Assembly: GCA_020072785.1 (NCBI GenBank)
Contig: JAIQGG010000002.1
Location: 434,001-498,000, forward strand
Source of the DNA: Terriglobia bacterium
GTDB taxonomy: Bacteria; Acidobacteriota; Terriglobia; Acidiferrales; UBA7541
Direction of reading: 5' to 3'
DNA length: 64,000 bases
Positions 4,877 to 63,689 of this stretch are shown here, piece after piece. The number at the start of each line of letters is the position of its first letter. The first letter of the stretch is position 1. Both the position numbers and the translations under genes were made by a program. Below the pieces are notes generated by a model. The model searched no databases. It saw nothing but the letters and a program-made list of their open reading frames with translations, and had not been told where the DNA came from.

Positions 4877-6169
4877 ATGGGATTCCGATTCCTCGCAGGT
4901 CTTCTATTTGCGGCACTTCTGAGTATTCCAATCTTTGCGCAGACACCGAAGGTATCCGAGCAGGGGCAGAAATGCCTGGACTGCCATGCGGCGACGACGC
5001 CGGGCGCGGTGGAACAGTGGCGTGAGAGCGCGCACGCCAGAAAGGGCGTGGACTGCTACTCCTGCCACCAGGCCGCGGCAGGCGATCCTGCGGCGTTTGA
5101 TCACTACGGGCAGAAGATCGCCGTGATCGTCACGCCGAACTACTGCGGGCGTTGCCACGAGAAAGAGGTGGAGCAGTTCGAGAAAAGCCACCACGCGAAG
5201 GCGGCGCAGTTCATCGGGTCGCTGGACAACATGCTGGGGGAGATCGTGGAGGGCGGGCCGGCGGCGATGAACGGCTGCCGGCAGTGCCACGGCAGCGAGG
5301 TGAAATATCTGGGCGGCGGGAAGTTCGATGCGGCCACGTGGCCGAACAGCGGGATCGGGAGGGTGAACCCGGACAAGAGCCTGGGCACGTGCGCGGCCTG
5401 CCACGGGCGGCACAGCTTCAGCTCGGCGCTGGCGCGGCAGCCGGAAAACTGCGGGAAGTGCCACATGGGTCCGGACCATCCGCAGATCGAGATCTACAAC
5501 GAATCGAAGCACGGGATTCAGTTCCGGGCGAACATCGCGAAAATGAACCTGGAATCGAAGTCGTGGGTGGTGGGGAAGGACTATTCGGCGGCGCCGACGT
5601 GCGCCACCTGCCACATGAGCGCGACGTCCACGCAAGGGATCACGCACGACGTGGGCGACCGCATCAGCTACACGCTGCGGCCGGTGGTCAGCATCAAGCT
5701 GGAAAACTGGGAGAAGCGGCGGGCGGCGATGCAGGACGTGTGCTCGGCCTGTCACGCGACGGGCTGGGTGGAAAACTTCTACAAGCAGTACGAAGGAACG
5801 ATCGAGCTGTACAACGAAAAGTTTGCCAAGCCGGCGAAGGGCATCATGGACAAGCTGTATGCGGCGGGCAAGCTGACCCGGACGCCGTTCGACGAGAAGC
5901 TGGAGTGGACCTACTACGAAATGTGGCACCACCAGGGGCGGCGCGCGCGCATGGGCACGGCGATGATGGGGCCGGACTACACGCAGTGGCACGGATTCTA
6001 CGAGGTGGCCAAAACGTTCTACACGGAGTTCATTCCGGATGCCGAGCGGCTGCTGCCCGGGGTGACCGCCGAGGTGATGAAGAGCGACTACCACAAGTGG
6101 ACGAAAGGAATGACCAAAGAGCAGATTCAGGAGCAGATCGAGTTTTACAAGAAGCGGTACAAGCAGTAG
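4877..6169 (+). CDS. octaheme cytochrome c, hydroxylamine-oxidoreductase family
   Basis: A 430-residue exported protein with signal peptide 'MGFRFLAGLLFAALLSIPIF'. Eight CxxCH haem sites begin at residues 33, 60, 90, 134, 172, 192, 242 and 289. The C-terminal haem-free part contains 'YYEMWHHQGRRARMG' and 'MMGPDYTQWHGFYEVAKTFY', which I recognise as the signature of the octaheme HAO family. Members oxidise hydroxylamine or hydrazine, or run in reverse as nitrite or hydroxylamine reductases. Direction depends on whether the catalytic haem is cross-linked to a Tyr, which needs an alignment. Strong ribosome site AAGGAGG at 4863-4869. The following hairpin at 6190-6233 suggests it is transcribed alone. 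Periplasmic location is inferred. Confidence 0.88.
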   Translation: MGFRFLAGLLFAALLSIPIFAQTPKVSEQGQKCLDCHAATTPGAVEQWRESAHARKGVDCYSCHQAAAGDPAAFDHYGQKIAVIVTPNYCGRCHEKEVEQFEKSHHAKAAQFIGSLDNMLGEIVEGGPAAMNGCRQCHGSEVKYLGGGKFDAATWPNSGIGRVNPDKSLGTCAACHGRHSFSSALARQPENCGKCHMGPDHPQIEIYNESKHGIQFRANIAKMNLESKSWVVGKDYSAAPTCATCHMSATSTQGITHDVGDRISYTLRPVVSIKLENWEKRRAAMQDVCSACHATGWVENFYKQYEGTIELYNEKFAKPAKGIMDKLYAAGKLTRTPFDEKLEWTYYEMWHHQGRRARMGTAMMGPDYTQWHGFYEVAKTFYTEFIPDAERLLPGVTAEVMKSDYHKWTKGMTKEQIQEQIEFYKKRYKQ

Positions 6170-60892: not shown

Positions 60893-62347
60893 GTGAACAT
60901 CGTCCTCATCGCCACGTATGAGCTGGGGCGGCAGCCCTTTGGCCTGGCCTCCCCGGCGGCCTGGCTGCGCGAGCGCGGCCATCGCGTCGCCTGCCTGGAT
61001 CTGTCGCGGCAAGCATTTGACGAGGAGGCCATTCGCGCGGCAGAACTCGTCGCCTTCCATGTGCCCATGCATACCGCAGCGCGGCTGGCCATTCCCCTGA
61101 TCGAACCGGTGCGCCGGCTGAATCCGGGGGCCCATCTCTGCTTCTACGGCCTCTACGCTCCGATGAACGAAGCGCACCTGCGCGCACTCGGCGTCGCGAC
61201 GATCCTTGGCGGAGAGTTCGAGGAAGGGCTGACCCAATTAGCGAAGCGCCTTGCGCAGATGCGGAGCGGCGCGGCGGCCGGCTGCGAACCGCAAGCCGAG
61301 CCGGTAATCTCCCGGGCGCGGCAGCAATTCGCTGTGCCGGACCGCAGCAGTCTCCCGCCGCTGCGCGGCTATGCCCACGTCGTGCTCTCCGAAGACGAGC
61401 ACCGCATCGCCGGCTACACCGAAGCCAGCCGCGGCTGCAAACATCTCTGCCGCCACTGCCCGATTGTCCCCGTCTACAATGGCGTTTTCCGCGTCGTGGA
61501 CCGCGACGTGGTCCTGGCCGACATCCGCCAGCAGGTGGCCGCGGGCGCCGGGCACATCACCTTCGGCGATCCCGACTTTTTCAATGGCCCCGGCCACGCC
61601 CTGGCTCTGGTCGAAGGCCTGCACCGCGAGTTCCCGCAGCTCAGCTACGACGTGACCATCAAGGTCGAGCACCTGCTGCAGCACGAGCGGCATCTGGTTA
61701 CGCTGCGCGATACGGGCTGCCTCTTCGTCACCAGCGCCGTCGAATCGCTCGATGACGCTGTCCTCGAAAAGCTGGCCAAGGGCCACACGCGCGCGGAGTT
61801 CCTGCGCGTGGTAGAGGTGTTTCGCCGGCTGGGCCTGGCGCTGCAGCCCACCTTTGTGCCGTTCACGCCCTGGACGACGCTGGAAAGCTATCTCCACATG
61901 TTGCAGGTCCTGCGCGAGCAGGAGCTCGCCGCGCATGTCGCCCCGATCCAGCTGGCCATCCGCCTGCTGATCCCGGCGGGCTCGCGATTGCTCGAGCTGC
62001 GGGACATCCAGCAGCTCGTCACGCCGTTCGATGCCCAGGCCCTGGTGCATCCCTGGCGGCATCGCGATCCGCGCGTGGACGCGCTGTGCGATGAGTTGCA
62101 GCAGATCGTCGCCGCGAGCGAGAAGCTGAAGCGGCCGCGCCACGCCATTTTCGAACGCGTCCTGCGCGCGGCGGAAGCTGCGGCGGGCGTGCGGGCAGCG
62201 GAGGCGGCCCAGCCGGTGCTTGTGGCCCGCGCCGCCATCCCCTATCTCAACGAGCCCTGGTACTGTTGAGCCGAGCCGTCGCGGGACCAGTTGGTCCCCA
62301 TCGCGCAAGCCAGGGAAGCGTTGAGTAAGGCCGAGTCGTTCGTCTAG
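60893..62347 (+). CDS. radical SAM selenoprotein with C-terminal Cys-Sec-Ala-Glu-Pro tail
   Basis: A 484-residue protein if the in-frame TGA (62267-62269) is read as selenocysteine. Residues 1-90 resemble a B12-binding domain ('MNIVLIATYELGRQPFGLAS'). The 4Fe-4S cluster cysteines are Cys182, Cys186 and Cys189 ('EASRGCKHLCRHCP'), followed by the radical SAM barrel ('GHITFGDPDFFNG', 'VTIKVEHLLQ'). The C-terminus reads 'LNEPWYC', then Sec459, then 'AEPSRDQLVPIAQAREALSK', ending at 62345-62347. I recall an NCBI family named for a CUAEP/CCAEP tail, but cannot check it here. GTG at 60893 is chosen; GTG at 60869 is possible. The ATP-grasp gene starts 10 bp after the true stop. Function unknown. Confidence 0.8.
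62267..62298 (+). promoter_or_regulatory. UGA selenocysteine codon with candidate bacterial SECIS hairpin
   Basis: TGA at 62267-62269, then a 13-nt spacer, then GGGACC (62283-62288), loop AGTT (62289-62292) and GGTCCC (62293-62298), a perfect 6-bp stem. The distance and the G in the first two loop bases fit bacterial SECIS rules as I know them. The downstream 25 codons stay open until TAG at 62345. Confidence 0.72.
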
Positions 62348-62357
62348 AAGGTCACCG

Positions 62358-63689
62358 ATGCATCAGGACGCAAACAACAAGAAGCGGTTGTTGCTCTTCA
62401 CCAGCAAGCTGGGCTACCAGACGCGCAGCTTCGCCGAAGCCGCGCAAAAGCTCGGAGCGGAACTGGTCTTCGTGACCGACCGTTGCGGCCGGCTGGATGA
62501 TCCCTGGGGCGACCACGCTATTCCCGTGCATTTCGAAAAGCCGGAAGCCGCCGCGGCAGCCGTACTGCAAGCGCAGCGCGGGCAGGCGCTGAACGGGGTG
62601 CTGGCGCTGGGCGACCGCCCCGCGCTGGCCGCGGCGTATGCCGCGCGGGGCCTCGGCGTGCTGCACAACCACCCCGCGTCGGTGGAAGCCTGCCGCAGCA
62701 AGCAGCGCATGCGCGAAGTTTTTCGCGAGGCGGGGATGCGCGTGCCGTGGTTCCGCGCGCTGCCGCTCACGCCGGCGCCGGAGCCCGCGCTGGCGGGTAT
62801 TACGTTTCCCTGCGTGCTCAAGCCGCTCTCGCTTTCCGCCAGCACCGGCGTGATCCGCGCCAATTCGCGCGAGGAGTTTCTCACCGCGGCGGAACGCATC
62901 CGCCGCCTGCTGGAATCGCCGGAGGTGCAGGCCACCCACGAGCCGCATCTCGACCGCATACTCGTGGAAGGCTACATCCCGGGCAGGGAAGTTTCCGTCG
63001 AGGGCCTGCTGACGGAGGGCGCGTTGCGCGTCCTGGCCATTTTCGACAAGCCGGAGCCGCTGGAAGGCCCCTTCTTCGAAGAGACGATCTACGTGACGCC
63101 GTCGCGCCTGAGCGCGGACGAGCAGCGCACCATCGCGCGCACCGCGCAGGAAGCCGTGCGCGCCCTGGGGCTGCTGCACGGGCCGGTGCACGTGGAGTTG
63201 CGCGTGAATGAAGATGGGGTATGGCCGCTGGAAGTGGCGCCGCGGCCGATCGGCGGCCTGTGCTCGCGCGCTCTGCGCTTTCAGGCGGACGCCGCGGCCG
63301 AACCCATTTTCCTGGAGGAACTGCTGCTGCGCCATGCCCTGGGCTTGCCGGGAAGTGACTGGCCGCGCGAGCGCGCAGCCTCCGGGGTGATGATGATTCC
63401 GGTGCCAAAGAGCGGCGTGCTGGGGAAGGTGGAGGGAGAAGAGGCGGCGCGGGCCACCCCGGGAATTACCGAGCTGCAGATCACCGCGCGGCTGTACGAC
63501 TACATCGCCGCATGGCCCGAAGGGTCGAGCTATCTGGGATTTCTCTTCGCGCGAGGCGGCAGCGCGGCCGATGCGGAAGCCGCATTGCGCCAGGCGCATG
63601 CGCGATTGCACTTCACGCTGGCGCCGCGCCTGCCGGTGGAGCACCCGGCCGCACGGTCAACAGCGACCGGGGCCGGGCAGCAGGATTAG
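62358..63689 (+). CDS. ATP-grasp ligase, partner of the radical SAM selenoprotein
   Basis: A 443-residue ATP-grasp enzyme. 'VLHNHPASVEACRSKQRMRE' marks the pre-ATP-grasp domain. 'FPCVLKPLSLSASTGVIRAN' is the nucleotide loop with its Lys. 'LVEGYIPGREVSVEGLLTEG' is the central strand, and 'VHVELRVNEDGVWPLEVAPR' followed by 'PIGG' carries the metal-binding Glu and Asn-like residues. The family joins a carboxylate to an amine through an acyl phosphate. Position, 10 bp after the selenoprotein stop, suggests the two genes make or modify one small molecule or peptide. The substrate is unknown. The stop codon overlaps the convergent yggX stop. Confidence 0.87.
   Translation: MHQDANNKKRLLLFTSKLGYQTRSFAEAAQKLGAELVFVTDRCGRLDDPWGDHAIPVHFEKPEAAAAAVLQAQRGQALNGVLALGDRPALAAAYAARGLGVLHNHPASVEACRSKQRMREVFREAGMRVPWFRALPLTPAPEPALAGITFPCVLKPLSLSASTGVIRANSREEFLTAAERIRRLLESPEVQATHEPHLDRILVEGYIPGREVSVEGLLTEGALRVLAIFDKPEPLEGPFFEETIYVTPSRLSADEQRTIARTAQEAVRALGLLHGPVHVELRVNEDGVWPLEVAPRPIGGLCSRALRFQADAAAEPIFLEELLLRHALGLPGSDWPRERAASGVMMIPVPKSGVLGKVEGEEAARATPGITELQITARLYDYIAAWPEGSSYLGFLFARGGSAADAEAALRQAHARLHFTLAPRLPVEHPAARSTATGAGQQD

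What the first reader, a model, noticed from the sequence alone, without database searches (positions are those of the whole stretch)
62240..62347. Radical SAM gene is probably a selenoprotein (Cys-Sec-Ala-Glu-Pro tail)
Seen: after 'EPWYC' the frame has TGA, then Ala-Glu-Pro and 22 more sense codons before TAG at 62345. A perfect GGGACC-AGTT-GGTCCC hairpin starts 13 nt after the TGA. The gap to the ATP-grasp start shrinks from 88 bp to 10 bp if the TGA is read through. Known: I recall a radical SAM family defined by a CUAEP/CCAEP C-terminal tail. Inference: TGA encodes Sec here, and conventional gene callers would truncate the protein exactly before its signature.
Basis: partly seen in the sequence, partly recalled or inferred. 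Interest (0 to 1): 0.92.

Follow-up and report, generated by a model that had tools for sequence, protein, structure and literature searches.

The report
Selenocysteine-ending radical SAM enzyme gene
A stop-like TGA codon near the end of this soil-bacterium gene almost certainly encodes the rare amino acid selenocysteine; the enzyme belongs to a family that NCBI already names, but whose function is unknown and which a 2026 list of 119 bacterial selenoprotein families leaves out.

Summary
Confirmed. The radical SAM gene (60893-62347, Acidobacteriota) has an in-frame TGA at 62267-62269, followed by Ala-Glu-Pro and 22 more codons. It scores 641.8 bits (cut-off 500) against NCBIfam NF040546, "CUAEP/CCAEP-tail radical SAM (seleno)protein", so it belongs to a named family. 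In two samples, all 132 relatives with a readable motif have TGA (100) or a Cys codon (32) in that column; one further relative swaps the order (UC). A hairpin with an AGTT/AGGT-type loop sits about 19 nt after the TGA, with strong covariation; it is mostly lost in Cys-coding relatives, and in three gp2 relatives survives behind a Cys codon (fossil SECIS). The genome has selA, selB, selD (itself with Sec) and two tRNA-Sec genes. Every TGA-form genome examined has selA; 5 of 10 Cys-form genomes lack selA and selB. Thermomicrobium roseum has the same TGA tail, and its public protein stops there. The gene is paired with an L-amino-acid-ligase-type ATP-grasp gene, whose only copy in the genome this is. 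Closest characterised relative: ArsL (arsinothricin synthesis). Inference: the selenoenzyme makes an unusual amino acid that the ligase couples. Substrate unknown.

The parts
60893..62347 (+). Radical SAM selenoprotein gene, CUAEP/CCAEP-tail family (GTG start inferred; 484 aa with Sec at residue 459)
   Evidence: ORF with TGA read as U; NF040546 641.8 bits vs cut-off 500; Pfam Radical_SAM 2.9e-11
61436..61459 (+). CxxxCxxC motif CKHLCRHC, ligand of the radical SAM [4Fe-4S] cluster
   Evidence: sequence; the three Cys are invariant in 34 relatives
62264..62278 (+). Cys-Sec-Ala-Glu-Pro tail motif (CUAEP)
62267..62269 (+). UGA selenocysteine codon
   Evidence: 100 of 132 relatives with a readable motif have TGA here, the other 32 TGC or TGT
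62283..62298 (+). bSECIS-type hairpin: GGGACC-AGTT-GGTCCC, G at second loop position, loop 19 nt after the UGA
   Evidence: covariation in 39 relatives: 91.6% of cells paired vs 70.9% shuffled, 65 double-change cells vs 23.4
62345..62347 (+). True stop codon TAG of the selenoprotein
62358..63689 (+). ATP-grasp gene of the L-amino-acid ligase type, partner gene, 10 bp after the TAG
   Evidence: Pfam ATP-grasp_4 1.1e-35 and LAL_C2 2.4e-14; PDB 3vot L-amino acid ligase BL00235 4.9e-35; conserved neighbour

Best explanation
The TGA at 62267 is translated as selenocysteine by the organism's SelA/SelB/SelC/SelD machinery, directed by the hairpin 13 nt downstream. The product is a full-length member of the CUAEP/CCAEP-tail radical SAM family whose vicinal Cys-Sec pair near the C-terminus is its signature. 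Shown by sequence comparison: Sec codon, SECIS, machinery, Sec/Cys interchange, pairing with an ATP-grasp gene. Inferred: (1) the Cys-Sec pair is a chemically active dyad (redox pair or soft-metal(loid)/substrate ligand), since Sec is replaced only by Cys and in one relative the order is swapped; (2) as in its sister ArsL, the enzyme builds an unusual amino acid from SAM, possibly by 3-amino-3-carboxypropyl transfer; (3) the ATP-grasp ligase joins that amino acid to another amino acid or amine. The confidence given is for the selenoprotein claim; for the chemistry in (2) and (3) it is about 0.3-0.4.
For: NF040546 641.8 bits, cut-off 500; all 34 aligned relatives hit the same family. Phylum sample: 46 TGA and 10 TGC tails, no other residue. 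Database sample: 54 TGA, 16 TGC, 6 TGT. Hairpin covariation 0/500 shuffles for paired cells, double-change cells and covariation score. Stem of 5 or more in 96/100 TGA forms vs 12/32 Cys forms, p = 7e-12; in phylogenetically independent pairs about 6-7 with, 0-1 against (sign test median p 0.03). Fossil hairpin behind TGT in L127, L132, L133. selA 555.6 bits, selB 356.3, selD 348.7 with its own GUAAKL Sec, two tRNA-SeC(tca). selA in all 46 TGA genomes; absent with selB from 5 of 10 Cys genomes (G317, G088, G269, G373, G293), Fisher p 7e-5. At least 11 Sec/Cys changes on supported branches. ATP-grasp adjacent in 23 of 32 WYC-type and 39 of 76 database loci, yet only one homologue in the whole genome. 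ArsL kinship: NF040542 281.5 bits below its 450 cut-off, tails CUAEP vs RCCLKC, ATP-grasp gene in ArsL-type clusters of Priestia and Alicyclobacillus.
Against: No protein-level evidence (mass spectrometry, 75Se labelling). The window hairpin alone is not significant. selB was not found in two TGA-form genomes (G110, G287), one of them only 75% complete. selC and selD were tested only in the window's own genome. Function is by analogy: the ArsL-cluster ATP-grasp genes are only 23-25% identical to the partner here and are not shown to be orthologues. The predicted structure leaves the tail at low confidence (pLDDT about 65), so where the Cys-Sec pair sits is unknown. The swapped UC tail is one metagenome-assembled genome, not seen in about 400 other genomes of its phylum.
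Confidence: 0.95

Rival explanations
1. The TGA is a true stop and the gene simply ends at ...EPWYC; the downstream similarity is untranslated sequence.
For: The ORF without read-through covers the whole radical SAM domain; the T. roseum public record is annotated this way.
Against: Cys relatives read straight through the position into conserved AEP. The codon is only ever TGA, TGC or TGT, never TAA or TAG, in 132 relatives. The hairpin covaries.
Confidence: 0.02
2. The TGA is a sequencing error or a decaying pseudogene in one assembly.
For: Metagenome-type contigs can carry errors.
Against: The same TGA occurs in 46 of 56 loci of the phylum sample and 54 of 76 database loci from many assemblies, including the annotated record of T. 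roseum DSM 5159. The rest of the gene is intact.
Confidence: 0.005
3. UGA is reassigned (for example to Trp or Gly) or read by general suppression rather than by SECIS-directed Sec insertion.
For: The frame is open when TGA is read as any residue.
Against: Relatives have Cys, never Trp or Gly, at the site. Bona fide tRNA-Sec(UCA), SelA, SelB and a Sec-type SelD are present. The hairpin is kept in TGA forms and lost in Cys forms.
Confidence: 0.005
4. It is a selenoprotein, but the enzyme is not ArsL-like in chemistry: the Cys-Sec pair binds or reduces an auxiliary cofactor in a B12-type radical methylase or an AprD4-type dehydratase, and the ATP-grasp acts in another step.
For: Structure search ranks AprD4, TsrM, OxsB and MgmA highest. 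The N-terminal domain weakly matches the B12-binding Pfam family, 24.8 vs cut-off 32.1 bits. All family members also match several B12/radical SAM models weakly.
Against: The closest full-length relative by far is ArsL (281.5 bits vs 42 or less for all others).
Confidence: 0.45

Closest known systems
NF040546, CUAEP/CCAEP-tail radical SAM (seleno)protein (NCBIfam)
   Same: Full-length match over positions 2-466 of 468, 641.8 bits vs cut-off 500; CU-AEP tail present.
   Different: The window tail runs 22 residues past CUAEP, as in its gp2/Acidiferrales relatives; most WYC-type members stop 8 residues after AEP.
ArsL, arsinothricin-biosynthesis radical SAM enzyme (NF040542; Burkholderia gladioli, PMC8552651)
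   Same: Homologous over about 400 residues (31-33% identity to two RCCLKC-tail relatives); C-terminal Cys-rich tail; some clusters include an ATP-grasp gene.
   Different: Below the ArsL cut-off (281.5 vs 450 bits); tail RCCLKC without Sec; ArsL sits with arsenic genes, none of which directly flank the window gene; no ArsL-level match (E <= 1e-120) in 297 genomes of this phylum (whose controls also rang nowhere).
AprD4 radical SAM diol-dehydratase (PDB 6fd2)
   Same: Best structural match, E 9.2e-18, TM 0.63-0.66.
   Different: 19-20% identity; no Sec tail motif known to me in AprD4; different gene context.
L-amino acid ligase BL00235 (PDB 3vot), for the partner gene
   Same: ATP-grasp plus LAL_C2 domains, E 4.9e-35.
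   Different: Paired with a radical SAM selenoprotein; substrate unknown.
Other radical SAM selenoproteins: TIGR04167 and TrsS NF045646 (listed in PMC13188914)
   Same: Radical SAM domain plus Sec.
   Different: Different families; neither is listed with a CU motif in the 2026 table, and neither appears among the matches of this protein.

Membership tests
NF040546 CUAEP/CCAEP-tail radical SAM (seleno)protein | Score above the curated cut-off of 500 bits over the full model | tested here: met
   641.8 bits, positions 2-466/468
NF040546 CUAEP/CCAEP-tail radical SAM (seleno)protein | C-[U/C]-A-E-P tail | tested here: met
   WYC-UGA-AEP at 62258-62278
Bacterial selenoprotein | UGA aligned with Cys in homologues | tested here: met
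   only TGA, TGC or TGT in 132 relatives
Bacterial selenoprotein | bSECIS hairpin just downstream, loop about 16-37 nt from the UGA with G in its first two bases (rule from my own knowledge) | tested here: met
   6-bp stem, loop AGUU, 19 nt; conserved and covarying
Bacterial selenoprotein | selA, selB, selC, selD in the genome | tested here: met
Bacterial selenoprotein | Sec present in the isolated protein | not testable with these tools
   needs mass spectrometry or 75Se labelling
ArsL (NF040542) | Score above 450 bits | tested here: not met
   281.5 bits
ArsL (NF040542) | RCCLKC tail and arsenic gene neighbourhood | tested here: not met
   tail is CUAEP; direct neighbours are an aconitase-like gene and an ATP-grasp gene
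ArsL (NF040542) | 3-amino-3-carboxypropyl transfer from SAM | not testable with these tools
   enzymology needed
Cobalamin-binding radical SAM enzyme | B12-binding domain above the Pfam gathering score | tested here: not met
   24.8 vs 32.1 bits; the best structural match is AprD4
L-amino acid ligase (partner gene) | ATP-grasp core plus LAL_C2 domain above cut-offs | tested here: met
   123 vs 27 and 53.8 vs 29.4 bits

The most novel reading that the evidence does not exclude
A two-gene pathway, widespread in Acidobacteriota and present in genomes labelled Chloroflexi, Methylomirabilota and other phyla, in which a Cys-Sec-tailed sister of ArsL makes a new ArsL-like amino acid (for example by 3-amino-3-carboxypropyl transfer to a soft element or other acceptor bound by the Cys-Sec pair), and an ATP-grasp ligase turns it into a peptide-type natural product.
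Probability: 0.3. Interest if true: 0.75.

Novelty: new member of a known kind. Interest (0 to 1): 0.45.

Why it matters
Public gene models of this family can end exactly before the Cys-Sec pair, as in the T. roseum record, so an enzyme expressed from them would lack its signature. The family is named in NCBIfam but missing from a 2026 inventory of 119 prokaryotic selenoprotein families (PMC13188914). A conserved selenoenzyme-plus-ligase pair in uncultured soil bacteria is a concrete, testable candidate for unknown natural-product or cofactor chemistry related to arsinothricin biosynthesis. Cys forms exist naturally, so the enzyme can be tested without Sec incorporation.

Tried and rejected
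Window hairpin significance alone: not significant, so the argument rests on relatives. Rfam scan of the region: only chance-level hits. A first protein alignment attempt failed on a second stop codon in the stretch given. PDB sequence search with the radical SAM protein: no match. Literature search for CUAEP or NF040546: no paper held; the two Haft papers most likely to mention it are not held, so whether they describe it is open. Search for further swapped UC tails in about 400 genomes of that phylum: only the known one. ArsL in the window's phylum: none at E <= 1e-120 in 297 genomes, but its controls did not ring either, so absence is not proven. Neighbour clustering: many clusters were antisense artefacts of GC-rich DNA; only the ATP-grasp cluster held up.

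Full report
Observation. The sequence is exactly as described. After ...EPWYC the frame has TGA at 62267-62269, then AEP and 22 more sense codons to TAG at 62345-62347; the ATP-grasp ATG is at 62358, so read-through shortens the gap from 88 to 10 bp. The hairpin GGGACC-AGTT-GGTCCC begins 13 nt after the TGA. The start is probably GTG 60893, which would put Sec at residue 459 of 484 (inference from relatives).

Identity. The read-through protein matches NCBIfam NF040546, CUAEP/CCAEP-tail radical SAM (seleno)protein, at 641.8 bits against a cut-off of 500, from model position 2 to 466 of 468, thus including the tail. All 34 aligned relatives match the same family.

Sec or Cys column. In 396 genomes of the phylum, 61 have a match above the cut-off. 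Of 60 loci fetched, 56 have a readable motif: 46 with TGA and 10 with TGC. A separate scan of 84,980 species genomes gave 80 loci; 76 have the motif: 54 TGA, 16 TGC, 6 TGT. The two samples may share a few genomes. No locus with the motif has another residue at the site. AEP is invariant apart from a few SEP. The closest relatives are Acidobacteriota (Terriglobia, gp2, Candidatus Acidiferrales), which places the window in that phylum; the family also occurs in genomes labelled Chloroflexi, Methylomirabilota, Gemmatimonadetes, Calditrichia, Verrucomicrobia and others. On a tree built without the tail, Sec and Cys interchange at least 11 times on supported branches (14 in all).

SECIS. In the TGA forms a stem follows with a loop beginning AGTT, AGGT or similar, about 19-20 nt after the TGA; in the Cys forms it is mostly gone although the encoded amino acids are similar. 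In 39 aligned TGA forms 91.6% of cells pair against 70.9% in shuffles, 65 cells change on both sides against 23.4, covariation score 0.618 against 0.229, none of 500 shuffles reaching any of the three; sliding the partner by one base drops pairing to 55%. Synonymous resampling gives a median p of 0.018 per TGA form and 0.79 per Cys form; the window hairpin on its own gives only 0.12. Stem of 5 or more, one mismatch allowed: 96 of 100 TGA forms, 12 of 32 Cys forms, Fisher p 7e-12; in independent pairs on the tree the stem goes with Sec about 6-7 times and against it 0-1 times. Three gp2 relatives have a TGT Cys codon but still carry the GGGACC-AGTT-GGTYTC hairpin: I read this as a fossil SECIS after a recent Sec to Cys change.

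Machinery. The window's genome (98.9% complete) has selA at 555.6 bits, selB at 356.3 bits, selD at 348.7 bits with its own in-frame TGA in the GUAAKL motif, and two tRNA-SeC genes with anticodon TCA, 3.6 kb apart. selA is above cut-off in all 46 genomes with a TGA form; five of the ten Cys-form genomes lack both selA and selB (G317, G088, G269, G373, G293), Fisher p 7e-5. selB was not detected in two TGA-form genomes, G110 and G287.

Annotation trap. The record of Thermomicrobium roseum DSM 5159 (NC_011961.1, WP_012643191.1) names the protein CUAEP/CCAEP-tail radical SAM protein, yet its CDS ends at ...ESWFC, and the DNA continues TGA GCG GAG CCG with a GGACCC-GTC-GGGTCC hairpin. Whether T. 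roseum has the sel genes was not tested.

Partner gene. Directly downstream lies an ATP-grasp gene with the LAL_C2 domain; its best solved relative is the L-amino acid ligase BL00235, 3vot. A homologue lies next to the radical SAM gene in 23 of 32 WYC-type loci of the phylum sample, and within about 5 kb in 41 of 60 overall, in various orientations in the WFC-type branch; 39 of 76 database loci have it adjacent and 53 of 76 nearby. The whole window genome has only this one homologue at E <= 1e-10, so the pairing is not chance.

Function. The nearest characterised relative is ArsL, 281.5 bits, below its cut-off of 450. [quoted passage not shown] RCCLKC-tail relatives on Priestia and Alicyclobacillus plasmids align over about 400 residues, end in a Cys-Cys tail, and their clusters include an ATP-grasp gene, though that gene is only 23-25% identical to the one here. 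A predicted structure (mean pLDDT 91.5, but about 65 at the tail) is most like AprD4, then TsrM, OxsB and MgmA; the B12-domain match is below cut-off. My best reading is an ArsL-like radical SAM step followed by amino-acid ligation, with the Cys-Sec pair as redox dyad or soft-element ligand. The Sec insertion is near certain; this chemistry is a hypothesis at roughly 0.3-0.4.

Novelty. The family exists in NCBIfam. A 2026 inventory of 119 prokaryotic selenoprotein families does not list NF040546 or a CUAEP motif (PMC13188914), and no held paper contains CUAEP or NF040546; two papers that might are not held. Hence: new member of a known kind, with new supporting detail.

Noticed in passing
L191, around 5335-5410: Anaerolineae MAG CHL1 (JAHDWK010000010.1): tail reads WY-U-C-AEP, Sec and Cys in swapped order, with an AGTTG-loop hairpin; its genome has selA at 563.6 bits. 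Only one in about 400 genomes of its phylum.
   Followed up: partly
L127, L132, L133, about 19 nt after the TGT codon: Cys-coding gp2 relatives that retain the SECIS-type hairpin: a fossil SECIS.
   Followed up: partly
L010 and L011, 1501-1599 (G000 C2:1115713 and C2:1112064): Two tRNA-Sec(TCA) genes 3.6 kb apart, identical at 87 of 99 bases.
   Followed up: partly
L198, 7300-7480: Thermomicrobium roseum DSM 5159: public CDS WP_012643191.1 stops at a TGA followed by AEP and a hairpin; probably a truncated selenoprotein.
   Followed up: partly
L100 and L102: Variant tail CUSEP with the stop right after one more residue, in two related genomes.
   Followed up: no
L199 732-1955; L200 427-1659: ATP-grasp gene next to RCCLKC-tail (ArsL-type) radical SAM genes and arsinothricin-resistance genes, suggesting a further coupling step in some arsinothricin-type clusters.
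   Followed up: partly
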